A stretch of DNA of 64,000 nt. It comes from Eublepharis macularius. Its lineage: Eukaryota > Chordata > Lepidosauria > Squamata > Eublepharidae. The stretch's first letter is position 1. The number at the start of each line of letters is the position of its first letter. Below the pieces are notes generated by a model. The model was not told where the DNA came from. It ran no database searches and saw only the letters and a list, made by a program, of their open reading frames with translations. A program made the translations under genes and the position numbers. The stretch spans positions 12,410,001 to 12,474,000 of the forward strand of contig NC_072805.1 of the NCBI RefSeq assembly GCF_028583425.1, given 5' to 3'. Of this stretch, positions 10,391 to 63,351 are shown in pieces.

Positions 10391-10424
10391 TAGGATGATA
10401 CAACGCAGCATGTGTTATATGTAT

Positions 10425-10692
10425 TGTCGAAGGCTTTCACGGCCGGAGAACGATGGTTGTTGTGGGTTTTCCGGGCTGTATTGCCGTGGTCTTGGCATTG
10501 TAGTTCCTGACGTTTCGCCAGCAGCTGTGGCTGGCATCTTCAGAGGTGTAGCACCAAAAGACAGAGTCAGTGAGAGATCTCTGTCTTTTGGTGCTACACC
10601 TCTGAAGATGCCAGCCACAGCTGCTGGCGAAACGTCAGGAACTACAATGCCAAGACCACGGCAATACAGCCCGGAAAACCCACAACAACCAT
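10425..10692. mobile_element. Palindromic Penelope-like terminal element
   Basis: Two inverted arms: one has TTTTCCGGGCTGTATTGCCG, CCTGACGTTTCGCCAGCAG and GGCATCTTCAGAGGTG, the other is its complement, and they meet near 10575. Each arm carries CTGAAGA, a GCCAGC/GCTGGC stem and GAAAC (10602-10636 plus; 10509-10543 minus), the core known from Penelope-like pLTR hammerhead motifs. AGCATG(T/C)GTTAT occurs on both sides (about 10410 and 10693), a probable target duplication. It sits inside an older L1 fragment. Confidence 0.65.
10602..10636 (+). ncRNA. Hammerhead-ribozyme-like core in the palindrome
   Basis: CTGAAGA, then stem II T-GCCAGC/GCTGGC with a CACAGCT loop, then GAAA-CGTC. CCT before and AGG after could pair as a short stem I. 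Stem III would be only ACGT, so a dimer would be needed, as described for some Penelope-like elements. A mirror copy lies at 10509-10543 on the minus strand. Confidence 0.5.
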
Positions 10693-12090: not shown

Positions 12091-12639
12091 GGGGTCTTGT
12101 TAGATGATATGTTTCTACATGTGTATGCACTGAGCTCAGAACAGTGCCGCAGGGGGAGGCTCCTGCCCTCCCCCTAATGCCATTTTCTTGCATGAAAACT
12201 ACATGAGAGGGGAGTTATTTCACTGATTTTGCAGTTCCATGTGGCCCAGCAAAGTCACATCAGAACGAGTGACAATGGGATTCACAGCAAATCTCCCCCC
12301 CCCGCCCCTTTCTGTTTGTAATTCTGACTGCATTTTTCTGCCAATATTGCATGCATCTGATACAGTGGGCTCCAGTCTATGAAAGTTTGTGCCATAATAA
12401 AATCTTGTTAGCCACTAGACTGATGTTTATTAGGATCCAATGAAAGCCACTGCCTGGAATAGGGTCCATTTCTGTGGGATGCGTGTAGTGGGTTCTCACT
12501 CATCAGACATGCATTTGACAATGTGGGCTCTAGCCCATGAACGTTTGTGCCAGAATAAAATATTAGTCATTAAGGTGCCACAAGGTTCCCAAAAGACTGA
12601 GATCCATATCCAGTTTTGTATTCCTACTTCCATTGCATT

Positions 12640-30903: not shown

Positions 30904-30940
30904 ATGAAGGTGTGGCGGCATAAGATCGAGCTGCTGACAG
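30904..30940 (+). CDS. NDRG4: NDRG4 first coding exon (long form, exon 1A)
   Basis: ATG in the CpG island, 12 codons ([12 protein letters not shown]) plus one base, donor ACAG|GTAACG. The split Gly codon is completed by GA at the start of exon 2, restoring LLTGLLLQEV. Confidence 0.9.
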
Positions 30941-33900
30941 GTAACGGGCCGGGCCCGGCCCTCGCGCGCGCGGCGGGGAGCGCCCAACGGGGCCCCGCGA
31001 CGTCTCCAGCCGGGACGCGGCCCGGACCCGGGCGGGTTCACCGCGCCGGGGGTCGCGGGGGGATCGGGGGGCTTCCCCAGAGCGGCCCCCTCCGCCGTCT
31101 CGCTCCCCCTCCCGGCCCGGAAATGGCCCCAGAGGCGTGGGGCGCACAAGCGCCGCGCCGCGCCACGCACTTCTTTTCTCTGGGCTGTGGCGTGGCTGGC
31201 GCCCGGCGGTGACTGGGCTGCGCCGCCGAAGCCGAGCGCCGGGCGCCCGCGGGGGCCTCGGGCTTGAACAGGCGCCGCGGAGGGCGCCGTGGCTCGGATG
31301 GAGCCCTCCCGCTGGGCTGCCTTGGCTGGGCCGGGGCGGGGAGGCCGAGGGGGAGGGAGCGCGAGCCAGGCGGGCCCGGGGTTGGCTCTGGCGGCCTTGC
31401 CGGAGGGGCCCTGCGGCTCCCGGTGCGCGCGTGTCTAAAGGGCAGCCCACGGGGCGCAGCCTGGCCAGCCCTCGAGGGGTTTCCGGGGCGGGGGGGGGGG
31501 GGGCTCGCCATTGCCTGCCTCTGCAGAGCCGCCCTGGCCGCCTCGGTGGCCCTGCTCAGCTTCCCCAGCTGGTGAGATTGTGAGAGGGGGGGGGGAGAGG
31601 TTCTGCGCGCACCTGCACACACTTTCTTGGCGTTTCTGTGTGGCGGTTATAAGGGGCGAGACTGCCAAGTAACCAAGACTGTTGCACTGTACATTTCCCC
31701 CCTCGCTTTGGTATCTCTGCGGAGAACGAAAACAGCCTCCTTTCCAAGACCCTCACAACGGTCACTGCTGGCGGTGCTGGGCAGGGATGGGGGGAAGATT
31801 TGGAAGGAGAGGCTCCCTGGGGCTCCAAGATCACCTGCAGGGGCATAGTGTTGTGCTCGCCAAGGGAGACGGTTCCTTGCGAGATCAGTTTCAGATTCTG
31901 TAGCTAGTTTCGAGGCGGCAGGAGGAAACTGCTACTGTAGCCAAATATGGGACTCTGTCAGGAGCCCTTGCTTTCCAACTGGCAGTCTGTCTTGCAAAGG
32001 AGATACTGGGGACCTTTATTCCCCTGCTGACGCATCCTCTGCAGCCCACACAGTGAGGACACCTAAATGCTTGACAGACAATGAGACAGAAGAATAGACT
32101 GAGCTGATAGTTTTGCCTGAATAGCTTGTTTGGGGAAATGGAACGCCTGGCCTAAGACACCGTTATCTTCACGTCATATTTCTCCAAGTTCAGTGGAAGG
32201 GTCAGAGGATAGATGCGCCATTTCCAGAATGACAGCTCTTTCTTTTCTTTTCTTTTTTTTTGGAAGTACAAGGCAGGAGGCCAGAGAAAAGGATGTTAAT
32301 TTGTGATGCAGTGTAATTACAGTACAATCCTATGAAGTTACTCCTGTTAAAGTTCACTGAAATCAGTGGGCTTGGATTGGAATAACTTTGCATTGGATGG
32401 CAGGATGCGAGTCCAGTGGCAATTTAGAGACAAAAAGATTTTCAGGGTGTGAGCTTTTGAGAACTCAAGCCCCCTTCCTCAGATATAAGGAGGTGTGGTT
32501 GTCTGTGAGCCACTAGACCCAAATCCTGCTGTTCTACTGGAGGCCAGTGCAGCTACCCGTCTGAAACTATCTGCATAGGGCTGCACTTTTAGAGGCCACA
32601 ATTAACAGGGGTTTTTTTTTACTCTTGCCCTGCAGCTAGTCACCTGTGTTCTTGACAACGTTTATGACTTTGCAAAATCTCAATTTGATAGCCTGAAAAA
32701 TCAGATTTTGGGTTTTATTATTCACAATCAGAGTTGGAAGGGGCCATACAGACTTTCTAGTCCAACCCCCTGCCCAGTGCAGGAGATTCTAACCTTTACA
32801 ACATGTCTGGCATTGCGACATTAACATCTCTCTCCTTGGTTATAAGGAAGAGGGGGCACTTCCAGGAAGTGATAGGCTTGGCCTCTTAGCATGGTGAAGT
32901 CATCACCATCTACTTGGGCAGATTGCAGTGTAGTGGGGCTGTAGCTCAGTGGCAGAGCCTCTGCTTTGCATGTAGAAGGTCCTAGGTTCAATCCCCAGTT
33001 AAAAGGATCAGGTGGCAGGTGACGCAAAAGGCAGCTTTGTTCTTCCATAGGGACTACTCTTGTTTTCTTGTGGCATACTCTGTCTTCATGAAGTTTCTTC
33101 CAGAGCACTCACAGGGAAGAAAAAAAGTGTCTGAACCAGTTAAATGCAAACTCTGATGGACAGGCATCGGCTTCACAGAGATGTATGAAAGACAGAAGGT
33201 TTACTCAGTAAATCCTGTTATGCAGGAAAGCAGTGCTCAGTGCATAGCTGGAGGAACCTAGATGGGCTAACCCTTCACCCCCAGATTTAGCCTCTCCTGG
33301 GCTGCTTGCTGTGTGGTCAGTTGCCCACAGTATAAAAGAGGTGGCCAGATGGTAGTCTAGGCTTTGGGACTGAAGCTCATGGACTGTTCAGGAAAGCATC
33401 ACAGAGAATTCAAAGGTGCCTTCATGGTGGGGCAATATGTACATGGTGGTGGTGGAGAGAGCCCTCAAGTCATAGCTGACTTATTCCAACCCCGAGTGGG
33501 GTTTTCATGGCAAGAGACTAACAGAGGTGGTTTGCCATTGCCTGCCTCTGCAACCCTGGTCTCTGTTAGAGGTCTCCCATCCAATTACTAACCAAGGCCG
33601 ACCCTACTTAGCTTCTGAGGTTTGACAAGATCAGGTTCACTGAACAGGCTGAATTTTATTTACTTCATTTATACCCCACCTTTCTCTCCAGTGGCGACCC
33701 AAAGTGACTTACATCATTCTCCCCCATTTTATCCTCACAACAAACCTATGAGGTAGGTTAGGCTGAGAGTGCGTGACTCTCCCCAGTGAATTTCCATGGC
33801 AGAGTGGGGTTTTGAAACTGCCTCTCCCAGATCCTAGTCTGACACTCTAACCACTGGACCATACTCTCTAGCCGGTTCTTCTCTGTAACTCCCAGTCAGA

Positions 33901-42900: not shown

Positions 42901-45900
42901 GGTGCACACAGTCTTAGCATCTCCTAAGGGCACCTTGTTTGTCCCTGCATAGAGCACTCGCCTGCCGCAGAGCTGTGCTGACATGTGTCCCTGGTTCCCT
43001 TTTTGGTGCAGGACTTCTTCTTCAGGAAGTGACCATGGCTGGCCTGCATGAGCTACGATTCACGGAAGAGAAGCCGCTGCTTCGGGGGCAGGATGCTGAG
43101 ATGGTGAGTCCTTTTCACTTTTTGTGGAGGATCCAAATCCTCGGGTCCAGGAATGTGGTCCCTTTTCCTCTTTGGAAAAGATGTGCATTGAGCAGCATGG
43201 TCAAAGATGTGTGTCAGGCTATGGTTGACAGGCTGTGGCAGATAAACCCCTGCACCCTCACAGCAAGAAATCCATGGTCTTGGTTGAAAGGCTTTATTCA
43301 GGAATCATGTCAAATCCACAGATATGTCCATGGGATTGCTCAGAAGAAAAGCTAGCAAACAAGCAATTTGGCAAGAATACTCAAGACGTGTGAAAATCAT
43401 TCTATTATAGAGCACAATTACACTTCCCCCGCTCCCAACTGTAAACATAACTTTTGGCGCGAGATTGCCCTGGGAGCTCCTCGCATAGTTTACATATCAA
43501 GTCTAGACACTAGGAAAGTACAAAAGTTGAAACAGAGTAAGTCATGAGAATGAATGGTTACACGGCCAGAAGCCCTGGGAGCTTCAAAGGAATGAGATAA
43601 GGCACCTGCAGCTTCATTAGGCCTGTGAAAGCGAAGCAGTTATGACATTGGCAATGTGACATCAAGGTACAGCATTAACAATTGTTCTTAGTGACAGCTC
43701 AGCTGGGAATAATGGCATGGATGGGGTACAGACATGACAATGTGACTGCAAACTGGATTGTAAACCTGGCACCTGAGAAGCATTTGGGGCTGAGGGGGAG
43801 AAGCAACCCTAGGCTCTGTCCAGAATCATTTGAAAGCAAACGCTTGTCAGATCCCTTTGAGACTACTGTGGTGTAGTGGTTAGTGTGTCAGACTAGCATC
43901 ATGAAGGCCCAAGTTCGAATCCCTACACTGCCACAGAAACTCATTGGGTGACCTTGGGCCAGTCACACACACTCAGTCTTACTTAAATTGAAGGATTGTT
44001 ATGAGGATAAAAAAGAGAAGAGATTGGTGTAAGCTGCTTTGAGTTCCTGCTGGGGGGGGGAAAGCAGGTGTAAATAAAAATTTGGAACCGTGTTCAAATT
44101 CAGGAAATATGCAAGAGACAAAATTTCCAGAAAGTTCAATGCAATTGCATTTAATTTCAAAATGAAACATCTCTTGAAAAAAAAGAGTGTGTGAAAGAGG
44201 TAGGACTAGTTAAAAGGGGGAAGACGGTTTCAGTTAGGTTAGTCATATCCCTTCTCTCAAATGTGGATGTTCTTTTAAATCCCTGTAATGGAGGGCCAGA
44301 TAAAATATATGTCACACATTACAAAGGGATCAAGGTGGCAGATTCAAGGTGGGTGGGAAATACAAGAGGGTGTCCAAGTGGACATCTTTCCCAACTAAGA
44401 AACCAATCACTGCCCCCTGCCCAAGTGAACAATAATGCACGCAAAGAAGGAGTTTGAAGAGCAAATAGCCAGAATGTTAGAAACTAGAACAAGAAACTGG
44501 TTTAAGTTGGCCAGCTGTGCGCTGCTGTTTGTTCAAGAAGAAAGAACATCAAGTGAGACATCGTGTGGCCACGGGGAAGAGCCGCCCTTCATCCTCTTCC
44601 ATCCCCTCGGAGGTTCATGTTGTTTAGGGGCTAAAGGGTAGAGACAGATTTTGTCCCCCTCCTCCAAATAAAACAGACTTCAGAGAGCCATCATTTCTCA
44701 TTGGGTATGCACCTTCTTTTGTCTCACTTTCACCTTTGGTTAATCAAATGTTGCAAATTCTTTATTTTAAAAATACAGATTTGTACATCAGGGAAAAAGT
44801 AAGATAAATCAGCCATCTGTATAGCAGAATATCTCCTTTCCCACAGTGGCCAGGTAGATGCCCTGGAAGGTCTCAGGTGGGAGGCACAGAGACCAAAGCT
44901 TTTCCCTGGCAACTGGCTATCTAAGGTCTACTGCCTCTGAACATGGAAGTTCCGTTCATCCATCATGGCGAACTGCCATGAATTTTCCCGGTCCCCCTTT
45001 AAAACCATCAGAGCTAGTGGCCATCATCACATCACATGGTCGTGAGTTCCACAAGTTTACTATATGTTTCGTGAAGTGATGCTGCCTTTTGTCTGTCCGG
45101 AATCTACTGCCCGTCCGTTTTCACTGAATGACCCCAGAACTGCATTTCCTCTCCTGCTCTAATCAAGCTGATTGCATTTTGCCTTGTACTTTTATATCCT
45201 GACCCCCTTCTTTGCAACACCCCTCCCACCTTCTGACTGGATATAAAGCCTCAGGAATCTCCCATTTCTACTAGTATTGATAAAAGGGCTTGACTCTCAA
45301 AAGATTCCCTGGAAAATTTTGTTAGTCTTTAAGGTGCTACTGGAATCTTGCTGTACTAAAGGAAGCTCTATTATTTTGGGATAAAGAGAGAAAAAAATAT
45401 CTCTATCCATGCTATGCAGACCACACATAATTTTATAAACCTCAAAAGCCTCAGTTTCTCTAGCCTTTTTCATGGCAAAGGCGTTGCAGTCCCTTGATCA
45501 TTTGGGTTGCCTCTTTCAGCATCTTTTCCAGTTCTACAATCTCTCTTTGAATACGGGCAGCCAGAACTGTACACAGTTTATCAGTTTTTCAAATGCAGCC
45601 ATGCCGCAAGAGCATTTGCAATAAAGCCTGCTTTGTTGTAAATCTCTTGCTTAGTAATCTCTAGAATAGAATCTGACATTTTCCCAAAATCTCTTTTCTG
45701 GTTAGTCACTGCTGATTGATACCCGATCAGGCATATGTAACATTAGGTCTTTCCCCTGCAACATATATCACTTTACTTTTCATCTGCATTGAAGCTCATT
45801 TGACTCTTGTCTAATTAGCAGAGAACTCCTCACAGTCTGCTTGAATTATATAGTGTGGTTGTAAATTTGTAGTATAGTTGTAAACATGGCAAGGACAGTT

Positions 45901-48900
45901 GTAATTGGGGAAATGCAGGCTCAGAGGTCCATATATGATACTCAGTGAAGGATGTTGGCTGTTTTATCCCTTATCCTATATGTATCATTTGACCCCTTCT
46001 GAATTAGGTACGAAAAGACTCACTTCCATATTAGCTATTAGTATCGACACTTTTATTAGCAAGTATATAAATCTAGTCGTTGAATGGGAGACTACTGAGG
46101 AAAACTGCAGAGGAAGGCACTGGCAAACCACCCCTGCTCCTCACTTGCCTTGAAAGCCCGTTTTTGGGGTTGTCATAAGTCGTTTGTGATTTGACAGCGC
46201 ACACGTACATATATAAATCCAGGCTCAGTGGGATTTATACCATTGGGGTGACAATCAGAAAACATGACTCTAATGCACAAAGCTAAGAGAAAATAAGAGT
46301 TGATCTCTTTCCGTCTTTATTCAGAGAGAACTCCCATGGAACATATGAAAGCTATGTAGGACTGCAGCCTTCAAGATTGTGTAATGAGTGGCTAGTGGTC
46401 GGTCTTTCAGATTATTTTTTGAACAAGCATGGCCATTCATGTAGAAGCTGAGAAAAATTTTGGTCTTTGGTGAGTCTGGGTTTGCTTGGTACTCTGCAAA
46501 GGAAAAAAAGTCTTAACAACAATTCATTGATGGTTTCTTTCTCTTCCCCCACCTATTTGTGGGGCTTAGGTTAGAACCATGCCTTTATTTTGTTTCTCCT
46601 GTCTAAAACACAACCATTGGGCTTGCAGTTAAAAACAAAAGATTGATAAGGAATGGGAAATATTAAAGAGTCCAGTAGCTCCTTTAAGACTAACTAACTT
46701 TATTGTAGCAGAAGCTTTCGAGAACCACAGCCCTCTTCGTCAGAGCTGTGGTTCTCGAAAGCTTAAAGGCGCTACTGGACTCTTTAATATTTTGCAACTA
46801 CAAACTAACACAGCTAACTCTTCTAGATCCATGAGGAATGGGAGGCATTTTCACTTGCTGGAGAAAACTTATGATTACCTCTCTGTTTTCCCTTCCTGGG
46901 CTAAAAACAGCTGGGGCTGCTGTTTTTCCTCAGAGGGAAAGGGTTAAAGAGCCTCAGCCACTGTACATTGTGATGTTTAAAAAGGGTCTTACAGAATTAC
47001 AAATTCAGACCTTTTTACAAAGGACATAGGGTGACCCTGGACAGACATTGGCCTGGATCCAGATGAAATTTTCCTGTTGGCAGAACAAAACGGACCCTCC
47101 CCCCTTGCTGCAGGCCAGCGATTTCCCAGAAATGCTGCTCTGGGGAGACAGAGGACCCTCAGGAAAGAAATGAGGGGCAAATTGAGGGTCGGCAGCAGGA
47201 TAGGGGAAATGGATGAAAGTGATACCTCCCCTCGTCTGAATCCATCCCAGTATCTGCTAGCCTGACGTACCTCACAGGCTTGTTGTTAGGGCAAAAAAGG
47301 AGGCTTCTGTACCATCTCGAGCTCTTTGGAGAAAGCATGGGATAAAAATCCCTTCAAAAATGATAGTTTCGTAAATAGAAAAAATGATAGACATGATCAT
47401 AGAGCAGGGTTAGGAGGGGTATTAGGGCCTGCTTGGGAACTAATCATTTTCTTTAATGTTGTTTTATTTTCCTCCAGGAGAATTCAGATACTTTCCTGTC
47501 TGCAGTGGACACGGACTGGAAGGTAGGTCGTCTCTTGGCGTTTGTGCCCCAGGCGCTCTCACATAGATTTTATGTATTCTGTATTTATGCACTTTATATA
47601 TCCCCCCTTCTTCTCCGCAGTGGGGACCCAAAGCCACTTACATCCTTCTCCTGCATTTTATCCTCACAACAACCCTGTGAGGTAGGTTAGGCTGAGAGCG
47701 TGTGACTGGCTGACGGTCACCGTACAAGCTTCTGCAGAGCTAGGAATCAAAGCTGGGTCTCCAAGATCTTAGTCCAGTACTCTAACCACTACACACCACC
47801 ACTACACCACTTGGCAGGGACTGTTGTGGTTGGGGAATTGCAGGTTCAGAAGTCCATATATGATATTCAGTGAAGGATGTTTATATGCCAATAAAGGCGA
47901 ACTTGACTTGACTTGAAGGATGTTGGTGACATTTAGAGGAGAAGTCTTTAAAAGAAGCAGCAGCCTCCTTTTATTTTTACTCTGGCAACCATAGCAGGGG
48001 TGTAGCATCTCATGCTGAGCATTCGGAGCACCCACTGCTCATCTGCAGGTGGTGCTATTTCTGGCTTCTGCACTTGAGTCTGCCAGAGATCTCGTTCAGG
48101 CATTTTGGAGGGGGGCCGCCCTGTACAAGCCACACAAGGAACCTCTTAGCTGGTCTCTTGGTTTCTGTCCCCTTTTGCAGAGGTGTACGTCTTGCCGCCC
48201 AAAGGCTGCAGGAGGCCCACAAATACATGTGCCAGTGGCCTCCTGCCAAACACCAGTTCATGGACTCAGCAGACATTGCTGGACTCCATGCCCTGAGAGG
48301 CTGTAGTGCTGTGGAGGAGGGGCCAGCTCAGCCTCATCGGGGGTTGTTGGGTGTCAGTGGGACCGTGCCACGAGAGATGGGCAGCAGTTTGTAGGCAGGC
48401 TGCCAGGTGGTGTGGATGTCTGGGAGATTTCTTTCATTTTAACTAGCTGAGACCTGAGGATGCACATATGCACACCCATTAGGCGTATCCAGGCACTCAT
48501 CCTTTCCTCAGAAGCTCCATCCCCATAGGTTGGTGGAGCCCTCTCTTGAGGAAGTACCACCTCCTCTCTCAACATCAGGTCCATCTGAATAGGTCTGGGG
48601 GAGGCAGATTGCCCCCCTGCCCAGTGATAGAATAAATTGTTCTCCACAACGGCAGGCTCCTTGTTTTAAAGCTCTGAATAGCCTCAGGGAATGCTTCCCT
48701 TTTTTCTATCTCAGGCACAAAATGAGAGCAAGCTCAAGTAATCAAGCTGTTCTTTAAATGGGAAGGATCCAGAAGAGTTAGACTGTAGTTTGAAAATAGT
48801 AAAGAGTCCAGTCGCACCTTTAAGACTAACCAACTTTATTGTAGCATAAGCTTTCGAGAACCACAGCTCTCTTTGTCAGATGAATCGATGCATCTGACAA

Positions 48901-51900
48901 AGAGAGCTGTGGTCATTGAAAGCTTATGCTACAATAAAGTTGCATCTGACGAAGAGAGCTGTGGTTCTTGAAAGCTTATGCCTCAATAAAGTTGCATCTG
49001 ACGAAGAGAGCTGTGGCTCTCGAAAGCTTATGCTACAATAAAGTTGCATCTGATGAAGAGAGCTGTGGTTCTTGAAAACTTATGCTACAATAAAGTTGGT
49101 TAGTCTTAAAGGTGCAACTGGACTCTTTACTATTTTTAAACGGGAAAGCAATCCATTATACAGAATGTCAGAACGCCTGTCTGAAAAGACAGAGAACTTA
49201 GAGGATTAGGGGCACGGCCCTTTGGGGAATTCTCCCACCCGTCGTGGATTCTCCATCTTGTTCTCATGGCCAGAGCTAAGCAGAAGGATTTCTCAGGGCA
49301 CTGGTGCTTCCACACTGGGATTTCCTGTACACTTTCCTGAGTCAGCCACCATTTTTCCCCTGTTGCACCACTTGAAGGCTTTTAAAATTTTATAATTTTA
49401 TAATTTTAAAAATTATAATGTTATTGCGATGACCAAGTTTTTAAAAATTCTTTAAAAAGCCCTCCAGTGACATAATGAGGAAAAGGGCAGTTGCAAAGGG
49501 CTAATGGAAGGAAAATGGGGCTGAATGTTGCACAACTTCCTGTCCAGATGGCACAATAAGGCGCCTACGCTCTTCCCAGGAAGGTTTTAGAAAACAGGTT
49601 TGGGGAAGGAGAATGCTAAAGTTGGGCAAAGGATGGTTGGAACACAATGTTGTATGGATGCTCTTTCCCCCAAAAGCGCTCCAGTTTGGATGCCAGAGAG
49701 GAACAAAGCTTCCCGTGAAAGCCAACCAGGGTTGAGACGGAAGAGTGCAAATGTTTTAAATAAAATACATTTTAAATGGGACTGATACTACTTCTTTGCT
49801 TGCTCTTGTAAAGTGAAAAATAGTGACTGATCTCTGGGGATGGGGTTAGGGTTAGACTTTTGTCTGAGGCCCGCTGGCCTTGCCTTGCAGGAACCTAAGA
49901 ACAACACACAATCTTTGGCTTTTCTTGCATTACCCATGTGGGCAACTTCTGTTCCACAAGGATAACATGAGGGAAAACGCGATACGCACTTCCTTCAAGA
50001 AGGCTGTGAGAGGTGCCTAATCATCTCCCTAACCCTTAAACCCTTCCTATCCCCTTCAAGCAGCCCGTAACAAAATGTAACTCTTGATCAAGGGTTTACA
50101 GATGGCTGATTCCGTCTAACAATACCCAAAGACTCAGCCTGCTTATGTCTTGCATAGCCCTGTTCTCCTCACATGCAAGACTGTACATCTTCTCTAGTAA
50201 AACATGTTAATCTTCTGGGCAGAGCAAGACTAGAATCCATAATGTGTGGCATTAGGCATGATTTAGACTTCTTTGTGTAACTTATTTGGGATTTTTTTTT
50301 AAGTTTTTTATTTTTCAATATCTAACATACAAAACTACAATAACAGTAACTACAAAAGACTACAATAGCACAAGGGAAGGAAAAGAAGGGAGAAAAAAGA
50401 GAAGGGGAAGGGGGGGTGGGAAAAAAGGGAAGGTAGCCTACAAACACTAAATGCTACACTTCAATGCTTTCCCTTCATACTACCATAATAAGAAAATAGC
50501 TTAATAAAGTAGTGGAGGAGTGGTTGATCATACAAATTACAAAGTACAGTTCAAGTTAAATCTTTTTCCCTCCCCTGGGCCTCGGACGCAATTCTCTCTG
50601 AGCAGCTACCGCCGCAGCGCTCGTTGCCTCCCCCCTCCCTTCAGGCTTCGGATCTTCTTCTTTTTGCTTGGTATCTGGTCCAAATTCTGGATTTTTTTCC
50701 ACAAAATCCCTTAGCTGATCTTCCGAATTAATCTTGTAAGCTTGATCTTTATAACTAAACCCGATTCCTTCCGGGAGTAGCCATTTGTACTTTATGTCAC
50801 ATTCCCTCAAAAGAGCTGCCAACTTCTTGTACTTAAATCTTCTCTTCTGAACTAAGAATGGAACGTCCTTCAATATCTTGACTTTATTTCCCAGAAAGTC
50901 CAACTCCACATTGTAAGAATTATATAGGATACTGTCCCGGACCCTCCTAGATGAAAACTCAATAACAATCTCACGAGGCAGCTGCCGCTTCAGTGCATAT
51001 TTTGAAGATGCCCGACGGACTCCCAAAATGGCGCTTTTCACTTCTTCTTTAGTTGCCCTCGCGGGTGTCGCTAAAAGTTCCGAGGCGAGATCCCACAAAT
51101 CCTCGTTTTCCTCCTCTTTAACGTTCTGGAGACGCAAAATGGTCTGTGTTCGCTCCACTTGCAGTCTGATCAGCTGGTTTTCCACCAGCTTCAGCTCCCT
51201 GTTCGTTGCTCTCATAAGTGACGCACTTTCCCGGGCAGACTTCTCTGCCCCCCCCCGCTGCTTCTTTAATGGCTTTCACATCGCTTTCAATTAAGCCCAC
51301 CCTTTGATCTGTTTCATTCAGCTTGTCAACAAAGGGTTTTATGGCTTCCATAACCGCTCTTTTAACCAGTTCCTCAAGCGTCTCGCCCCTCTGCAAGGCC
51401 GCCGTAACTGACTTGCCAAGAGCAGGGCTCTGCTTTTTCGCTGCCATTTTAGGGGGGGGGGGAACCGCCAGTCTTCCGAGCCTCTACGAGGGGGGAAAAA
51501 TCCGAGTCTTCTAGCCTTCAGACCCCGCCACTCCTCACATCGCTTGTAGTAACAGAAGGGATTCGCTTACCTGCAGGCTTTCGCCTAATCCTGTTCCTTG
51601 CCGTTTTCCATGGCCCAGCAGCACACTGGGTGCCGCGCTCGTCTGCCGGCCTCCATAGGGACTTACGGGCAATTTACCCCCTGCCTCGATCTGTCAGAGG
51701 GCTCTTCCCGCCGCGCCCCGGACTCAGACTCCCTGCCTGAGAGTCTGGGGGCTAACCTTTGCAGATCAGCCGCCCGGCCAGGCGGCTCGGCCGCTTCTTC
51801 CTGGACCTGCCAAGAAGAGCGTCCGACATGGCCGCGAAAATGAAACCGACCCCTTATTTGGGTTTTAATAGTCATGGGAATGGCAAAGCTACTAGAAATA

Positions 51901-60900: not shown

Positions 60901-63054
60901 GATACCAAAGACACTTTACCTCCTCTGCCTTCGGAACAGCCTTCTGTCCCAGGGTAGTTTTATCATGCTGTATTTTTGTATGGAGGGGTGATGCAGGTCT
61001 CCATTAGCAGTTTTGAAGGAGCATGGAGGCTGTTCCTCTGATGTCCGAAAGAAGGTACTTGGCAACGCTTCCAAGAGGAAACTGCTTCACCTGCCTGGGT
61101 TTTGGGCCCGGCTGGTAGAAATCTGTTTAGTCCGTGTAGTTCTTCTCCCCTCCTCTTCTCTGGGCTTATTCCCATGTTGTACGCAGACTGTTTCTCTGCT
61201 GTATGCCATTGGATGGGCAATAATTGTGTCTGCTGCACTGGTCTGTGACAGCATCTCATTTGAACCCTGGGGGCTGTTTATTCTTCCTTTTTGTGGGAGG
61301 CAAAAAGAAATGGTAGGATTCTTGGTGAATGACATAGCTATATGTGTGAAAAGCACCATAGACAGGTAGGTAGTGACTGATATTTAACCGTCCATTTTTA
61401 TTTCTTTATTTTTTGTTGTTGTTCTGCAGATGGCTTTACCACTCAGCCAATAATTGGGCAACACCAATTCTACTTTGCAAACAGAACATGCAAAACTGTT
61501 TTCTGTTGAGTCAGCCCATTAGCTCCCTGACCATCAGCAATGGACAGGGGGAAAGGGAGACTGGGGGGGGGGGTTAAGTGGAGATGTCCTGCATTCAGAA
61601 CATGAATTCTGTGCCCCCCCCCCTTGAAGGTCCAAGAAAGGGAGTCTGAACTTATGCTAGGCAGAAGAGGTTTATGTGGACCTCTCCCTCATAGTTGCTA
61701 TTTGCCAGATCACTTATCCCCCAAATTCTGTATCGGAAGCCTTGCTTCCAAAATGATTCAGGTTGAGGGATGCAGTCGGGCTTGAAGTTGCACATTTTGA
61801 CCTGAAGGTCTGGGTGAGTCTGGCTAGTTGTGGCTACAAGAGGCAGTTTACTGTAAAGGTAGCAGCTTTCATCCTTTCCAGACCTGAGACCCACTGAGCG
61901 GCAGACATGGGGCAGGAGTCATATGTCATAGTCATGTGACAGAAGGAGGGCAAAGTCATGCCTTCCTTGGTGTCAAGGCCAGCAGACCCAAGAGTGCTGA
62001 GGACAGAAGATGCAAGCCAAAGATTGTTGTGGAGAACAAGACAGAGCCCTGGATGGATCCTCTCCAGTCACCTCTCCTTGCTGCTCTGCTGTTTCTCTAA
62101 GCATGTATGTGTTGGTAATCAGATGGGCACCTGCAGGCAACCCCCTCCCCCCCAAAAGGATAGGCATTCCCAAAAATTAGATGCTGTTCTCAGGAGAGTG
62201 GAAAAATATTAGCAATGTACCGGTGTGTGTCTGTATGTGTGTTCTGGTTCCATTAAATATAAAAATACAAAAGAAACGCAGTCTGAATTGATTATCCTAG
62301 TTCATTGTTATTTGAATATCTCTTACACTTAAATGTGACCACTTGTATATTTTGCATTACTTTGTTTTGCCTTGTAAAGAGGAGGGTGTTTTACAGCATT
62401 TCCTGTGTCTTCTTCTCTCACAACCACCCTGTGAGGCAGACGGATGTTACTCATTTTGCCAAAAAGAAACGGACTGGGAGAAAGGGCGTTGTCCAAGGTC
62501 CTGAATGACTTTGGGTCAGAGGTGTGTGTGGGGGTGGGTGGGAAACTTTCATGGAGAAGAGGAGAATGTTGTAAACCACTTTGGGTCCTCCATTGGAGAG
62601 AAAGGCAGGATATAAATGAATTAAAATAAATAAAGAGCAAGAGTCCAGTAGCACCTATAAAACTAACAAAATTTGTGATAGGGGATAAGCTTTTGTGAGT
62701 CACAGCTCGCTTCTTCAGATACTTCTGGATTCTGAAGAAGTGAGCTGTGACTCAAGAAAGCTCATCCTCTACCCCAAATGTTGTTAGTTTTATAGGTGCT
62801 ACTGGACTCTTTCTCTTTCCTACTGCTACAGACATACTGCTACAGACAGACTAACGTGGCTACCCGTCTTGATCTATCTTGTAAAAGAAATAAATGAAGC
62901 TTTTGCGGCCAAACTCACAGCTTTGCATTTCATTTGTCTCTCTTCCAGGAGCACGATATCGAGACCCCTTACGGGCTGCTGCATGTGGTCATTCGGGGCT
63001 CTCCAAAGGGGAATCGCCCGGCTCTCCTAACTTACCATGATGTGGGACTCAACC
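30904..63054 (+). CDS. NDRG4: NDRG family member 4, 5' part (3' exons outside the window)
   Basis: NDRG proteins have an alpha/beta-hydrolase fold without catalytic activity; NDRG4 is known as a brain and heart protein. The long form uses exons 30904-30940, 43012-43103, 47478-47522 and 62949-63054. Splice borders are canonical and the phases agree. The product reads [13 protein letters not shown], then [45 protein letters not shown] and [17 protein letters not shown] to YHDVGLN. A second form starts in exon 1B (MPESWDG, 59507-59527) and joins the last exon in phase 0. A third start is possible at the internal Met of exon 2 (MAGLHELRF), which has a good Kozak context (GACCATGG). The last donor (C|GTGAGT) leaves phase 1, so the gene continues past 64 kb. 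Introns 1 to 3 are about 12, 4.4 and 15 kb and full of repeats. Confidence 0.95.
32330..32400. repeat. Small palindromic repeat, diverged
   Basis: CAGTACAATCCTATGAAG and TTACTCCTG, then AATCAGTGGGCTTGGATTGG and AATAACTTTGC follow the order of the 30043 copy. Confidence 0.55.
32405..32575 (-). repeat. Half of a Penelope-like terminal element
   Basis: GTCCAGTGGCAATTTAGAG, GTGTGAGCTTTTGAGAACTC and CTTCCTCAGAT form one arm. A diverged second half ends CAGCTACCCGTCTGAAACT. Confidence 0.45.
32725..32815 (-). repeat. CR1-type LINE end, antisense
   Basis: AATCAGAGTTGGAAGGGGCC, TTTCTAGTCCAACCCCCTG and CCCAGTGCAGGAGATTC. Confidence 0.7.
32930..33110 (+). repeat. tRNA-derived Sauria-type SINE with clear A and B boxes
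   Basis: GGGGCTGTAGCTCAGTGGCA, TCTGCTTTGCATGTAGAAGG, TAGGTTCAATCCCCAGTTA and AAAAGGATCAGGTGGCAGG. The tRNA-like head is well kept. Confidence 0.85.
33455..33650 (-). repeat. 5S-Sauria SINE, antisense
   Basis: GGGGTTTTCATGGCAAGAG, GTGGTTTGCCATTGCCTGCC, GGTCTCCCATCCAATTACTA, CCGACCCTACTTAGCTTCTG and ACAAGATCAGG are the complement of the 5S-headed SINE. Confidence 0.85.
33655..33870 (-). repeat. MIR-like SINE, antisense
   Basis: TTATACCCCACCTTTCTCTC, GGCGACCCAAAGTGAC, TTATCCTCACAACAAACC and CACTCTAACCACTGGACC. Confidence 0.85.
33871..35935. other. NDRG4 intron 1, unique-looking stretch
   Basis: No gene or confident repeat. The 150-codon frame at 34799-35251 and others have no recognisable domains. 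Confidence 0.35.
35970..36040 (+). repeat. Fragment of the palindromic terminal element
   Basis: TAATCTTTAAGGTGCTATTG and ATAGACCAACACGGCTACTC match the right end of the elements at 15720 and 62635. Confidence 0.6.
36776..37335. repeat. Perfect 146-bp inverted repeat with a 268-bp loop
   Basis: The sequence 36776-36921 (starting AAATTACCCCCTCAGTCTAC) is the exact reverse complement of 37190-37335 as far as I can compare. The right arm and loop are LINE coding sequence on the minus strand; the left arm is an inverted copy of part of it. Confidence 0.85.
36922..37430 (-). mobile_element. Non-LTR retrotransposon ORF2, C-terminal part
   Basis: Minus-strand frame reads [14 protein letters not shown]-like (here split by variants: VWEFRDL, VGIKDHS), [56 protein letters not shown] and [16 protein letters not shown]. 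This is the typical post-RT region of a LINE. The clade is not assigned with certainty. Confidence 0.7.
37499..37870 (-). mobile_element. BovB (RTE clade) LINE, ORF C-terminus and 3' end
   Basis: Minus-strand frames read [79 protein letters not shown] and [18 protein letters not shown]. They match the BovB C-terminal block known from ruminants and squamates. At least one frameshift (near 37735). It ends in a GTGT-rich 3' tail. Confidence 0.85.
38036..39590. other. NDRG4 intron 1, unique-looking with a GA microsatellite
   Basis: A GAGAGA run lies at about 38259-38277. No exon could be supported. Sequence around 38280-38990 is moderately GC-rich and repeat-poor. Confidence 0.35.
39590..39785 (-). 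repeat. MIR-like SINE, antisense
   Basis: TTTATACCCCATTTTTCTCC, GAGGACCCAAAGAAGC, TTATCCTCACAGCAACCC, TGACTGGCCCAAGGTCACCC and GATTCGAACTTGGC. Confidence 0.85.
40375..40998 (+). mobile_element. L2-type LINE ORF2 C-terminus and 3' UTR (first piece)
   Basis: Frames read [39 protein letters not shown] and FSEVAPHLW, the L2 C-terminal landmarks. The 3' UTR breaks at about 40998 and appears to resume near 42806, so a 1.8-kb insertion splits it. Confidence 0.75.
40999..41571 (+). mobile_element. Unidentified interspersed element, copy A
   Basis: It begins CTAGCTTGTTACCTCTGCTT, with TTTAAATCCAGTTATAATAC soon after. It runs through GACCAATCAGGCCGCATAC, CCTGCCAGCCACACAGGGA, TTAGGGGGCGAATGTC and TCTAGGTCCAGGGGTTTGGG, and ends CTTTATATATATA. 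Copy B follows directly. I do not recognise the class; the ends resemble widespread elements starting with TGATGCCCGTGCTTCGCTAC. Confidence 0.6.
41572..42805 (+). mobile_element. Unidentified interspersed element, copy B with inserted sequence
   Basis: The start CTAGCTTGATGCCCGTGCTT and CCAGTTATAATATTT match copy A. From about 41690 to 42360 the sequence is foreign: it contains GGGGCGGCGCCAGGG, a hAT-like end motif, at about 41905. After that the copy A body returns (GACCAATCAAGGCCGCATATG, CTAGGTCCAGGGGTTTGGG) and ends TTTATATATATA. Confidence 0.55.
42806..42885 (+). mobile_element. L2-type LINE 3' end (second piece)
   Basis: CATTGTGTGGCACTTTGTAA, GCCGCCTCC and AAATAAATAAATAA form the normal L2-type tail, continuing the LINE interrupted at 40998. 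Confidence 0.6.
43012..43103 (+). CDS. NDRG4: NDRG4 coding exon 2 (contains alternative start MAGLHELRF)
   Basis: 92 nt, acceptor TTTGGTGCAG|GA and donor GAGATG|GTGAGT. It encodes [20 protein letters not shown] and [10 protein letters not shown]. The internal ATG at 43034-43036 has GACC before it and G after it, matching the start of known NDRG4 isoforms beginning MAGLQELRF. Confidence 0.95.
43104..43855. other. NDRG4 intron 2, unidentified
   Basis: No exon beyond exon 2. An antisense AATAAAG (43289-43296) within repeat-like sequence could belong to an old LTR fossil, but no partner was found. Confidence 0.3.
43862..44085 (+). repeat. MIR-like SINE
   Basis: TGTGGTGTAGTGGTTAGTGT, CCCAAGTTCGAATCCC, TGGGTGACCTTGGGCCAGTC and TTGTTATGAGGATAAAA. 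Confidence 0.85.
44880..45870 (-). mobile_element. CR1 LINE 3' region, antisense
   Basis: AAACCATCAGAGCTAGTGGC, GTCGTGAGTTCCACAAG, GCCTTTTGTCTGTCCGG, TTTTCCAGTTCTACAATCTC, CAGCCAGAACTGTACACAG and GTCACTGCTGATTGATACCC keep the order of a well-known sauropsid CR1 segment. Interrupted near 45250-45360 by a terminal-element fragment. Confidence 0.7.
45275..45358 (+). repeat. Terminal-element fragment inside CR1
   Basis: CTCAAAAGATTCCCTGG and TTGTTAGTCTTTAAGGTGCT match the right arm of the palindromic elements. Confidence 0.55.
46075..46215 (+). repeat. 5S-Sauria SINE, 3' part
   Basis: GAATGGGAGACTACTGAGG, GGAAGGCACTGGCAAACCAC, CTTGCCTTGAAAGCCCG and TTGTCATAAGTCG with an ACACG tail. Confidence 0.75.
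46662..46832. mobile_element. Palindromic Penelope-like terminal element in NDRG4 intron 2
   Basis: The arms AAAGAGTCCAGTAGCTCC and GGCGCTACTGGACTCTTTAA mirror each other. A hammerhead-like core lies on the minus strand at 46706-46743 (CTGACGA, GAAAGC, then TA). The right end is CAACTACAAACTAACACAGC. Confidence 0.7.
47478..47522 (+). CDS. NDRG4: NDRG4 15-codon exon
   Basis: Acceptor TTTTCCTCCAG, donor AAG|GTAGGT, exactly 45 nt: [15 protein letters not shown]. It is phase 0 on both sides, so it could be skipped without changing the frame. It corresponds to the ESSDAFLLAADTDWK segment of mammalian NDRG4. Confidence 0.94.
47570..47800 (-). repeat. MIR-like SINE, antisense
   Basis: ATATATCCCCCCTTCTTCTC, GTGGGGACCCAAAGCCAC, TTATCCTCACAACAACCC and TACTCTAACCACTACAC. 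It starts 50 bp after the 15-codon NDRG4 exon. Confidence 0.85.
48800..49140. mobile_element. Palindromic terminal element with an internal 4 x 52 bp tandem array
   Basis: The left arm (AAAGAGTCCAGTCGCACC...) is antisense and the right end reads TCTTAAAGGTGCAACTGGAC. Between them lie four consecutive units of exactly 52 bp starting CATCTGA(C/T)(A/G)AAGAG. It lies in NDRG4 intron 3. Confidence 0.85.
48891..49098 (+). repeat. Four 52-bp units each with a hammerhead-like core
   Basis: The units are 48891-48942, 48943-48994, 48995-49046 and 49047-49098. Each has CTGANNA, AGAGAGCTGTGG, a pairing TTCTT/CTCTC segment, GAAA, (G/A)CTTATGC and AATAAAGTTG. They differ from each other at only a few positions. 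The whole unit is repeated, not just the stem. Confidence 0.85.
49141..50280. other. NDRG4 intron 3 stretch, no gene recognised
   Basis: It contains an AT-rich palindromic patch (49383-49425, TTTTATAATTTTATAATTTT) and otherwise unique-looking sequence. Confidence 0.35.
50291..51852 (-). mobile_element. Half-LINE: L1 5' UTR, ORF1, 3' UTR and poly-A without ORF2
   Basis: CTTATTTGGG flanks both sides (50281-50290 and 51853-51862). On the minus strand the element starts GGGGTCGGTTTC, has a GC-rich 5' part of about 400 bp, ORF1, then only about 265 bp of 3' UTR ending AATAAAAAACTTAAAAAAAA. ORF2 is absent, so it resembles the HAL1 type known in mammals. Confidence 0.85.
50556..51447 (-). pseudogene. 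L1 ORF1 protein, one frameshift
   Basis: The N-terminal frame has [20 protein letters not shown] and [20 protein letters not shown], a coiled-coil-like part. The C-terminal frame has [38 protein letters not shown], an RRM-like block with [19 protein letters not shown] and a CTD-like block with [20 protein letters not shown]. The two frames shift by one base at a G run (about 51249-51257). A length of about 297 codons is normal for ORF1p, whose job is RNA binding and chaperoning of L1 RNA. It could be one base from intact, which suggests a young copy. Confidence 0.85.
51863..53085. other. NDRG4 intron 3, no gene recognised
   Basis: Short LINE-tail-like motif (TTATAGGCCACCTTTCTTATTG, about 52059) antisense; otherwise unique-looking. 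Frames near 52469-52771 show no domain. Confidence 0.35.
53085..53480 (+). mobile_element. L2-type LINE ORF2 C-terminus
   Basis: Frames read [53 protein letters not shown] and [17 protein letters not shown], the L2 C-terminal pattern, decayed. Confidence 0.6.
54060..54260 (+). repeat. MIR-like SINE
   Basis: TTTAGTGTAGTTGTTAAGAG, GGGTTCAAATCCTCATTTG and GAGACTTTGGGCCTG, then AAAGGCAGGATTAAAATG. Confidence 0.7.
54670..55010 (+). repeat. Possible L2-type LINE tail
   Basis: CAGGGCCTTCCCAGCTCTTA, TAGAATGCTCTCCCCGCTGC and the following pyrimidine-rich 3' UTR resemble the L2 C-terminus and tail. Weak. Confidence 0.35.
55025..55395 (+). repeat. Two MIR-like SINEs in tandem
   Basis: First copy 55025-55245 (GGTTTGATTCCCCACTCCTC, CTGAAGGGCTGTGTATAAAT, GTTGTTGTTGTT). 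The second starts at 55247 (GGGTGACCTTGAGCCAATC) and ends GGTGTATAAATGAAGTAAAT. Confidence 0.8.
55700..55786. repeat. Small palindromic repeat interrupted by a MITE
   Basis: CAGTGCCATGATCAGCAAAG at the left and CTCTGCTTAGGATTGTACT at the right. The terminal bases recur after the MITE (56038-56046, ATTGTACTG). Confidence 0.6.
55787..56037. mobile_element. hAT-type MITE with perfect 8-bp target duplication
   Basis: Termini CAGGGTTTTTTTTC and CAGAAAAAAAGTCCTG. ATTGTACT lies on both sides (55779-55786 and 56038-56045). The inner palindrome (CCCCTGATCTCCAGACAGAG) matches the copy at 7248-7566 but is about 70 bp shorter, lacking its right inner segment. Confidence 0.9.
57290..57523 (-). repeat. 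Possible hAT-type element fragment
   Basis: GGGCACCATGTTGGGGATCACTGCC is the complement of a common hAT start (CAGTGATCCCCAACATG). Only one end was found. Confidence 0.4.
57960..58150 (+). repeat. tRNA-derived Sauria-type SINE
   Basis: GAAGGTTTTGGGTTCAATCC, AGACAGTAGGTGACGTGAAA, CTGACCTTGATGGACCAAG and GAGTATAAGGCAGCTTCA. Confidence 0.75.
58195..58420 (-). repeat. MIR-like SINE, antisense, diverged
   Basis: CACCGCCTTTCCTCCAAGG, CAGTGATTTGACCCCAAGGT and GAGTCTGGGTCTCCAAGGT. Confidence 0.55.
59373..59378 (+). promoter_or_regulatory. NDRG4: TATA box of the internal NDRG4-B promoter
   Basis: TATAAA in the context CTCCTTTATAAAGGCC, 129 bp upstream of the MPESWDG start codon. A start site near 59403 would give a 5' UTR of about 100 nt carrying a short CTG run (59449-59462). 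This contrasts with the CpG-island promoter 28 kb upstream and suggests tissue-restricted use. Confidence 0.72.
59507..59527 (+). CDS. NDRG4: NDRG4 alternative first coding exon (exon 1B, NDRG4-B type)
   Basis: ATG CCC GAG TCC TGG GAC GGG followed by GTAGGT encodes MPESWDG; human NDRG4-B starts MPECWDG. It ends in phase 0 and joins EHDIETPYG, which also starts in phase 0. A TATAAA lies about 130 bp upstream. Too short for ORF calling. Confidence 0.92.
59528..62390. other. NDRG4: NDRG4 intron downstream of exon 1B, repeat-poor
   Basis: About 2.9 kb with no confident repeat, unlike the rest of the locus. Several open frames (for example 60067-60627 minus, 186 codons) have no recognisable domain. 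The low repeat load next to an internal promoter suggests regulatory sequence. Confidence 0.4.
62395..62635 (+). repeat. MIR-like SINE, diverged
   Basis: CACAACCACCCTGTGAGGCA antisense-like start and CACTTTGGGTCCTCCATTGG, AGAAAGGCAGGATATAAATG at the 3' end; possibly two overlapping copies. Confidence 0.5.
62636..62875. mobile_element. Palindromic Penelope-like terminal element 70 bp before an NDRG4 exon
   Basis: AGAGTCCAGTAGCACCTATA and TTTTATAGGTGCTACTGGAC mirror each other around TCTGGATTCTG. CTGAAGAAGTGAG, CTGTGACTCA and GAAAGC mark the core in both arms. The right end ends CAGACTAACGTGGCTACC. Confidence 0.7.
62949..63054 (+). CDS. NDRG4: NDRG4 first shared exon (start of NDR domain)
   Basis: Acceptor CTCTCTTCCAG. 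It encodes [35 protein letters not shown] plus one base, donor AACC|GTGAGT. Both the long and the NDRG4-B forms join here. Confidence 0.97.
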
Positions 63055-63351
63055 GTGAGTGTATTGTGTGATTCTAGTCTGGGAGGCGGGTGCTTGCTTA
63101 CCACTGGCCTAAGGGGATGTTTTCTGTTGGCACCACCTGTGCTCTGTCTGACAGCCAGGCCAGTGGAAGGCTACTGATGCTTATGTGCCTATGGAACTGC
63201 CCACTGCAGTGGCCAAATGAGGGCAGGAAGCTGTGCAGGCAGCACGAGCTCTTTTGAGGCATGGAGTGGGCCCATTTGAGAGACCAAATGGTGGCGACGT
63301 AGAATGGGCAAATTGGAACTATTCACTGGTCTAATAAAAAGATTTTTCCTC

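What the first reader, a model, noticed from the sequence alone, without database searches (positions are those of the whole stretch)
48891..49098. Tandem array of four hammerhead-like units inside NDRG4
Four exact 52-bp units each carry CTGANNA, a short stem with a CTGTGG-type loop, GAAA and a GC-TTAT-GC hairpin followed by T and A/C. They lie inside a palindromic element whose relatives carry the core once per arm. Tandem units of this kind are known from ribozyme-bearing satellites and retrozymes, where self-cleavage gives unit-length RNA. The array would be transcribed with the NDRG4 pre-mRNA. The units and the motif are seen directly; ribozyme activity is inference. In units 1 and 4 the pairing is weaker and in unit 2 TA reads CT, so not all could be active.
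Basis: partly seen in the sequence, partly recalled or inferred. Interest (0 to 1): 0.75.

Follow-up and report, generated by a model that had tools for sequence, protein, structure and literature searches.

The report
Tandem mini-hammerheads in a jumping element
An intron of a vertebrate NDRG4 gene holds four 52-letter repeats that each look like a tiny self-cutting RNA of the kind carried by Penelope-type jumping genes; the same repeats form arrays at many other places in this genome, and whether they cut has not been tested.

Summary
The array is real: four 52-bp units (91% alike, not exact) in a palindromic insertion, 48765-49134, in a sense intron of NDRG4. Stem I is GCAU/AUGC, the core CUGACGA plus one extra A, stem II GAGAGC/GYUCUY, and stem III a loopless AGCU palindrome that only a dimer can form. 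The predicted cut is GCUU^AUGC. A strict descriptor finds 5 hits in the window (2 in the array), none in 60 shuffles. Stems I and II covary between families. Rfam models do not detect it. Units 2 and 3 are intact and adjacent; 1 and 4 are damaged. The element has marks of a short non-autonomous Penelope-like (PLE) insertion: head-to-head arms, target duplications, a ~38-nt tail on one arm. Thirty-eight other fetched loci hold 4-20 units, spaced 52 bp with few exceptions; exact unit junctions occur 2,444 times genome-wide. Array loci sampled lie nearer contig ends than sampled single copies. Most copied arms run through the cut site, so cleavage was not needed for insertion. Best reading: a known kind of ribozyme (minimal, dimeric, PLE-type) that became a dispersed minisatellite. 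Cleavage is untested; no helper element was identified.

The parts
48753..48764 (.). left target-site duplication TTTAAATGGGAA
   Evidence: read; 11 of 12 bases equal to 49135-49146
48765..49134 (+). whole palindromic insertion: long-tail inverted arm, four units, short-tail arm
   Evidence: ends set by eye by comparison with 38 other loci
48765..48888 (-). inverted arm with the long tail (about 10 bases deleted within the tail) and one unit
48844..48883 (-). hammerhead core of the inverted arm, G8 changed to A (CUGACAA), probably inactive
   Evidence: model R1 56.2 bits; sequence
48890..48941 (+). unit 1: core CUGACAA (G8 to A), stem II broken, probably inactive
   Evidence: 44.8 bits
48942..48993 (+). 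unit 2: intact hammerhead 48942-48981, predicted cut 48977^48978
   Evidence: 66.9 bits, where it is a seed of the model
48994..49045 (+). unit 3: intact hammerhead 48994-49033, predicted cut 49029^49030; with unit 2 a candidate double hammerhead in cis
   Evidence: 70.8 bits, where it is a seed of the model
49046..49097 (+). unit 4: core intact, stem III AGCU changed to AACU
   Evidence: 59.9 bits
49098..49134 (+). short tail GGTTAGTC...CTATT, ending at the inner reverse-transcription start
   Evidence: a 32-base tail consensus occurs 6,822 times in the genome
49135..49146 (.). right target-site duplication TTTAAACGGGAA
47478..47522 (+). NDRG4-like exon 5' of the array ([15 protein letters not shown])
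   Evidence: recalled query
62946..63059 (+). NDRG4-like exon 3' of the array ([17 protein letters not shown]...)
   Evidence: recalled queries

Best explanation
The 52-bp unit is a minimal type I hammerhead ribozyme of the Penelope-like element (PLE) kind: no closed stem III, an AGCU palindrome that must pair with a second copy, and one extra A after the core residue A9. It sits at the 5' end of a short non-autonomous PLE-type RNA whose 3' part holds the two reverse-transcription start sites. The RNA was copied from both cut target strands, giving two head-to-head arms; one copy starts at the inner site and one about 38 nt further out (the PLE 'tail'). In some copies the ribozyme unit was duplicated, probably by a template jump at the shared GTTG. 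The resulting arrays then spread and changed length, partly before or at insertion and partly by minisatellite-like change near chromosome ends. Adjacent intact units (2 and 3 here) could fold as a nested double hammerhead and cut in cis at GCUU^AUGC, but cutting is not needed for insertion, and more than half of the units sampled are decayed. Shown: sequence, covariation, element anatomy, array spread, most arms reading through the cut site. Inferred: mobilisation by a PLE enzyme, the template jump, any cleavage.
For: Strict descriptor: 5 window hits, 0 in 60 shuffles, all 5 with the extra base; 9 hits in 264 kb including those 5, in several families, 8 of 9 with the extra base. Model R1 finds 25 matches in 264 kb at E up to 1, 6 of them its own seeds; on these 15 cells have changes on both sides against 4.9 in shuffles, covariation 0.310 against 0.209, and all six slid structures are far lower on cells paired and covariation. 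Stem III changes from AGCU to ACGU in the second family. Ends: 24 of 29 loci with both arms measured have one long and one short tail, medians 98 and 60.5 on a 100-base scale; shared flanking words of 7 or more bases in 19 of 29, against a mean of 2.15 (largest 6) in 300 mismatched pairings. Papers: a 30-40 bp tail between two start sites, and cleavage and extension of both strands (PMC11167929, main-text section read); a tail on one of the inverted pseudo-LTRs, 8-10 bp duplications, head-to-head palindromes (PMC3846280, passages); thousands of dispersed minimal type I hammerheads lacking helix III, in tandem in PLEs, which may cleave as dimers (PMC7761336, passages). GIY-YIG matches are many in this genome (78 matches, 150 candidates scored). 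Spacing is exactly 52 in 307 of 313.
Against: No Rfam hammerhead hit to E = 10. The plain energy model prefers a longer duplex: for units 2-3 MFE -30.0 against -16.8 for the double hammerhead. Only 150 of 351 units keep every feature. Two of five covariation measures do not exceed the shuffles clearly, and the alignment was fitted to the model. The one presumed PLE copy looked at (a frame with a GIY-YIG match; its short end pieces matched no Pfam family) gave no convincing R1 match at either end (best E 1.2 and 0.17), so no helper element with this unit was found. The published anole PLE ribozyme cut only with its protein present (PMC11167929). An extra base in the core of a viroid hammerhead is described as causing weak activity, with more cleavage when it is deleted (PMC11014351, passage); further details of that ribozyme are recalled, not read.
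Confidence: 0.7

Rival explanations
1. Retrozyme-like route: units cut the transcript into 52-nt pieces that circularise and are copied by rolling-circle reverse transcription, which makes the arrays.
For: Tandem units with hammerheads, spacing 52 bp in 307 of 313; 26 of 39 loci have at least one adjacent intact pair; animal retrozymes exist (PMC7229834, passages).
Against: The tail is not part of the repeated unit. Of 31 inverted arms found at 38 loci, 24 run through to the RNA 5' end and 1 ends at the cut site; of 38 array arms none starts there. Of the 32 palindromes with readable letters among 120, none joins cut site to cut site. The unit is 52 bp against about 170-400 nt for published animal retrozymes.
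Confidence: 0.08
2. Ordinary minisatellite: the hammerhead is only an inherited fossil, and arrays grow by unequal exchange or replication slippage in recombining chromosome ends. This overlaps with the best explanation, which takes it for part of the array growth.
For: Array loci 23 of 29 in the outer 10% of contigs against 33 of 78 tail copies; exact unit junctions clustered at ends of C1-C3; shared derived changes within loci 399 against 37 expected; a few very uniform arrays such as L017 and L010.
Against: Units in most loci differ almost as independent copies (median within/(2 x to consensus) 0.87 over 38 loci), so most arrays probably existed at or near insertion. It explains array growth, not what the unit is.
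Confidence: 0.3
3. The motif is conserved because the mobilising enzyme binds it or because it shapes the RNA 5' end; self-cleavage is irrelevant and the hammerhead core is coincidental.
For: Most arms read through the cut site; in the anole PLE, ribozyme mutants insert normally in vitro (PMC11167929).
Against: In intact copies the catalytic residues, H17 and a self-complementary stem III are kept while the letters of stems I, II and III change between families; coincidence would not be expected to keep A15.1-U16.1 and H17.
Confidence: 0.15

Closest known systems
Minimal PLE-type hammerheads (Cervera and de la Pena 2014; Lunse, Weinberg and Breaker 2017; both seen only as references, content partly recalled; PMC7761336 passages read)
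   Same: CUGANGA and GAAA core, no closed stem III, proposed to act as dimers, dispersed in the thousands in animal genomes, associated with Penelope-like elements
   Different: one extra base after A9 in 8 of the 9 descriptor hits found here; a 52-bp unit in arrays of 4-20, not whole pseudo-LTR repeats. Whether those papers describe either feature I could not check
Poseidon PLE of Anolis carolinensis, PAc (PMC11167929, main-text section read)
   Same: main reverse-transcription start 85-92 nt 3' of the ribozyme cut (my subtraction from the printed positions), a 30-40 bp tail between two starts, copying from both target strands, insertion without ribozyme cleavage in vitro; here the two starts lie about 53 and 91 nt 3' of the predicted cut
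   Different: PAc encodes a protein; the element here is about 130 nt per arm without a long reading frame, and no helper with the same unit was identified
Newt and axolotl hammerhead repeats, amphibian retrozymes (PMC7229834 and PMC6155905, passages)
   Same: tandem type I hammerheads with weak stem III, better as dimers
   Different: axolotl RNAs of about 330-350 nt that circularise; here a 52-bp unit with a separate tail
Chrysanthemum chlorotic mottle viroid plus-strand hammerhead (PMC3705267, legend)
   Same: an extra A in the hammerhead, recalled as lying between A9 and stem II
   Different: plant viroid with a circular RNA genome, otherwise unrelated

Membership tests
Hammerhead ribozyme | core CUGANGA ... 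GAA, A15.1-U16.1, H17 | tested here: met
   units 2 and 3; 150 of 351 array units keep core, stems, AGCU and H17 together
Hammerhead ribozyme | stems I and II, supported by covariation | tested here: met
   15 cells changed on both sides against 4.9 shuffled; slid structures far lower on cells paired and covariation, though slide -3 ties on pairs with a change on both sides (4) and two of five measures are not clearly above the shuffles. The alignment was fitted to the model, which favours the structure
Hammerhead ribozyme | closed stem III in one molecule | tested here: not met
   AGCU palindrome with no loop; only a dimer can form it. This agrees with the known minimal PLE form
Hammerhead ribozyme | match to an Rfam hammerhead model | tested here: not met
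   none at E up to 10
Hammerhead ribozyme | self-cleavage at the predicted site | not testable with these tools
   needs in-vitro transcription
Penelope-like element, non-autonomous pseudo-LTR type | head-to-head inverted arms and target-site duplications | tested here: met
   31 of 38 loci with an inverted arm; shared flanking words of 7 or more bases in 19 of 29, mismatched pairings mean 2.15, largest 6
Penelope-like element, non-autonomous pseudo-LTR type | optional tail of 30-40 bp on one arm | tested here: met
   24 of 29 loci one long, one short; medians differ by 37.5
Penelope-like element, non-autonomous pseudo-LTR type | same unit and tail on an autonomous PLE with RT and GIY-YIG | tested here: inconclusive
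   78 GIY-YIG matches, 150 scored of 3,593 candidates; one copy examined at both ends, no convincing match
Retrozyme | unit of about 170-400 nt with circular RNA | tested here: not met
   52-bp unit; circular RNA not testable here

The most novel reading that the evidence does not exclude
The arrays are working ribozyme arrays: adjacent 52-nt units in introns fold in cis as nested double hammerheads with an extra core base and cut nuclear transcripts of host genes such as NDRG4, releasing 52-nt RNAs, at many loci concentrated near chromosome ends.
Probability: 0.12. Interest if true: 0.82.

Novelty: new variant of a known kind. Interest (0 to 1): 0.55.

Why it matters
Minimal, dimer-dependent hammerheads of Penelope-like elements are known, but their use is not. 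This genome holds natural arrays in which two units lie 52 nt apart on one RNA, the arrangement such ribozymes would need to work in cis. There are probably hundreds of such loci (the 100 listed junctions of 2,444 fall in about 49 places, counted by hand), with many mutant units (for example 66 of 351 with G8 changed to A) as built-in controls. RNA data from the species would show directly whether they cut. The one-long, one-short arms and the read-through of the cut site also bear on how these elements copy both target strands. The Rfam models tried here do not detect these units.

Tried and rejected
Rejected as the main route: 52-nt circles (most arms pass the cut site). Rejected as evidence: Rfam microRNA-family scores on the region, all below their gathering scores and explained by the long palindrome. 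Led nowhere: searching the library for the element's letters (10 papers, each with only the shortest term; I opened none); one presumed PLE copy, whose 3' side (L067) and 5' side (L068) gave no convincing R1 match and no Pfam match for two short end pieces. One search folded the window units with a one-base offset; one search repeats them correctly and only that is used. One search failed and was repeated. In one search the C2 comparison used 0.11 as limit for junction loci and 0.10 for controls; recounted by hand at 0.10 it is 26 of 29 against 4 of 12. Pattern CTTCGTCAGATN{0,30}ATCTGACGAAG (for the RNA 5' end) did not complete, nor was CTACAATAAAGTTYCATCTGA, so there is no genome-wide count of palindromes joined at the RNA 5' end to set beside.
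Full report
What is there. Tandem Repeats Finder gives four copies of a 52-bp unit at 48889-49098 with 91% matches, so the units are similar, not exact. They form one arm of a palindromic insertion that I place at 48765-49134. It is flanked by TTTAAATGGGAA (48753-48764) and TTTAAACGGGAA (49135-49146), a target-site duplication with one difference, read. NDRG4-like exons on the + strand lie on both sides: MKVW... at 30904-30942, 43011-43124 and 47478-47522 before the array, and EHDIETPYG... at 62946-63059 after it, with an alternative first exon near 59507. The query peptides were recalled human NDRG4, so the gene name rests on recall plus these matches. The array is in the sense strand of an intron of the long form.

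The motif. Another assignment fits: GCAU | CUGACGA | A | GAGAGC-UGUG-GYUCUY | GAA | AGCU | U^AUGC. Here GCAU pairs with AUGC (stem I), the core is CUGANGA, one extra A follows A9, stem II has 6 pairs, and A15.1 G15.2 C16.2 U16.1 is a palindrome without a loop. A single molecule cannot close stem III, but two copies can. A strict descriptor of this layout (0 or 1 extra base, stems I and II of at least 3 pairs) finds 5 places in the window: 48946 and 48998 in the array (units 2 and 3), 15800, and both arms of a second family at 10543 and 10602. It finds none in 60 dinucleotide shuffles. In the window plus 20 evenly placed 10-kb pieces (264 kb) it finds 9, those 5 included, of which 8 carry the extra base. 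The second family has other letters in all three stems (CCU/AGG, GCCAGC/GCUGGC, ACGU) and the same core.

Statistical support. A covariance model from 6 seeds finds 25 matches at E up to 1 in the same 264 kb, the 6 seeds among them. On that alignment 85.7% of cells are paired against 80.2% in shuffles, with 15 cells changed on both sides against 4.9, covariation 0.310 against 0.209, and every slid structure far lower on cells paired and covariation. Two of the five measures (pairs with a change on both sides, further pair types) did not exceed the shuffles clearly (98 and 133 of 500 shuffles as high), and slide -3 ties on the first. The alignment is fitted to the model, so it leans towards the structure. 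Rfam finds no hammerhead at E up to 10 in 48700-49200, 48985-49060 or 10480-10680.

State of the four units. Unit 1 has CUGACAA (G8 to A) and a broken stem II. Units 2 and 3 are intact and adjacent. Unit 4 has AACU in place of AGCU. The inverted arm has G8 to A. In two tandem units the double hammerhead is a nested secondary structure: GCAU of the first with AUGC of the second, AGCU with AGCU, AUGC of the first with GCAU of the second. The energy model does not favour it (units 2-3: -16.8, two single hammerheads -21.2, MFE -30.0). It ignores the core's own contacts, but a competing duplex between the two stem II strands is a real concern.

Other loci. The window's own genome (unnamed, 2.24 Gb, 72 contigs) gave 120 matches to the array from 40 scored of 1,418 candidates. 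I fetched 38 other loci. With the window, 39 loci hold 352 units, 4 to 20 per array; one array runs off its fetched piece, and 351 units could be read whole. This sample is biased towards long, well-matching arrays. Spacing is 52 in 307 of 313 cases; the exceptions are two of 56, two of 51 and two of 50. Genome-wide the exact unit junction occurs 2,444 times and an exact 32-base piece of the tail 6,822 times, with none for either pattern read backwards. All features are intact in 150 of 351 units; 66 have G8A and 41 have G12A, both readable as CpG decay. An adjacent intact pair exists in 26 of 39 loci.

Element anatomy. In 29 loci where both arms could be measured, 24 have one tail ending at position 50-68 and the other at 89-100 of the reference (medians 60.5 and 98). 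The other five are L012, L029, L041, L044 and the window, where a deletion inside the long tail stops the alignment. The two flanks share a word of 7 or more bases in 19 of 29, against a mean of 2.15 and at most 6 when flanks of different loci are paired in 300 trials; 9 or more in 10 of 29 against 0.05. PMC11167929 (main-text section read) reports for the anole Poseidon element a 30-40 bp tail between two reverse-transcription start sites, cleavage and extension of both target strands, a preferred start 111-118 bases into the reading frame with the ribozyme cut 26 bases in, and normal insertion in vitro when the ribozyme is mutated. By subtraction that start lies 85-92 bases 3' of the cut; here the two starts lie about 53 and 91 bases 3' of the predicted cut. 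PMC3846280 (passages) reports inverted head-to-head pseudo-LTRs with palindromic junctions, 8-10 bp duplications and a tail optionally on one inverted pseudo-LTR. These features together make a PLE-type non-autonomous element the best reading. GIY-YIG matches are many in this genome (78 at E up to 0.001, 150 scored of 3,593 candidates). I looked at the two ends of one such copy and found no convincing model match and no Pfam match for two short end pieces, so the helper is not identified.

Does cleavage shape the insertions? At 38 loci (one, L023, dropped because its array starts at the edge of the fetched piece) an inverted arm was found in 31. Of these, 24 reach the RNA 5' end, 4 stop inside the core region, 1 stops at the cut site, 1 just 3' of it and 1 in the tail; of 38 array arms, 35 start at the 5' end, 3 inside, and none at the cut. 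A genome-wide pattern for palindromes joined near the cut site gives 120 places, with 4 for the pattern read backwards. In the 32 places whose letters were shown, none joins cut site to cut site, 3 of 64 arm ends lie exactly there by a strict first-mismatch rule, and the largest pile (16 of 64) is at the self-complementary AAGCTT. So the sampled templates were mostly uncut. The matching count for joints at the RNA 5' end did not complete.

How the arrays grew. Units within a locus differ on average at 3.0 of 52 positions against 3.9 between loci (345 units). Outside CpG sites the median ratio of within-locus difference to twice the distance from consensus is 0.87 over 38 loci, close to independent copies, yet shared derived changes are 399 against 37 expected. 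So most arrays probably existed at or near insertion, with some later duplication. Array loci lie closer to contig ends than tail copies picked by a rare substitution: 23 of 29 in the outer 10% against 33 of 78 (one-sided Fisher P = 0.0006; medians 0.036 and 0.121). Used were 29 of 39 array loci (10 on C15-C18 dropped, which the control list did not reach) and 78 of the 100 listed control copies of 121 (21 on contigs whose length I lacked and one second arm dropped). The controls themselves are enriched at ends (33 against 15.6 expected). On contig C1, 23 junction places lie at 10.5-18.1 and 223-253 Mb and none between, while 8 of 11 control copies on C1 lie between. This fits minisatellite-like growth in end regions. 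The first duplication may be a template jump at the GTTG shared by the unit end (AAAGTTG) and the RNA 5' end (GGTTGCATC, seen at several palindrome centres); this is inference.

Known or new. Minimal hammerheads lacking helix III, dispersed and in PLEs, and thought to act as dimers, are known (PMC7761336 passages; PMC6155905 passages). The two primary papers were not held and are cited from reference lists and recall. An extra A in a natural hammerhead is known from a viroid (PMC3705267 legend); a later paper says such an extra base makes that ribozyme weak (PMC11014351 passage); its exact place is recalled. I found no description of 52-bp ribozyme arrays or of this element in searches of an open-licence library, which is far from complete; most listed papers I did not open. 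I therefore call it a new variant of a known kind.

Noticed in passing
window 10421-10692 (approximate): A second palindromic element family with a hammerhead in each arm (CCU/AGG stem I, extra U, ACGU stem III, predicted cut CGUC^AGG); also unequal outer tails. Same kind of element, different letters in all stems.
   Followed up: partly
window 15722-15925, 46658-46829, 62639-62833: Three more palindromic copies of the tail and core family; 15722-15925 appears flanked by ATAGTAAAGACT.
   Followed up: partly
window 12353-12392 (+) and 32447-32486 (-): Weak, decayed relatives of the hammerhead unit (17.2 and 20.7 bits with model R1).
   Followed up: no
L020, units from 776 to 1044 of the oriented locus: Two adjacent unit spacings of 56 with the junction AAAGTTGGATGCATCTG, and a variant (ACAGTT) shared by four neighbouring units: traces of local unit duplication.
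   Followed up: partly
G000:C3:173204269-173204300 (-) and 173204405-173204436 (+): Two facing tail copies 136 bases apart, probably the arms of one palindrome, carry the same rare substitution, which suggests that both arms were copied from one template.
   Followed up: no
L044: The truncated tail of an array is followed at once by the second hammerhead family (GGTTGTTGTGGGTTTTCCGGGC...), as if one element inserted into the other.
   Followed up: no
L068 (G000:C3:101995300-101995900): 5' of a frame with a GIY-YIG match lies a stretch whose minus-strand frame looks like a tyrosine recombinase of DIRS type (motif recalled, not tested).
   Followed up: no
window 32942-32998 (+): tRNA-like sequence (34.9 bits to Rfam tRNA), probably the head of a tRNA-derived SINE.
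   Followed up: no
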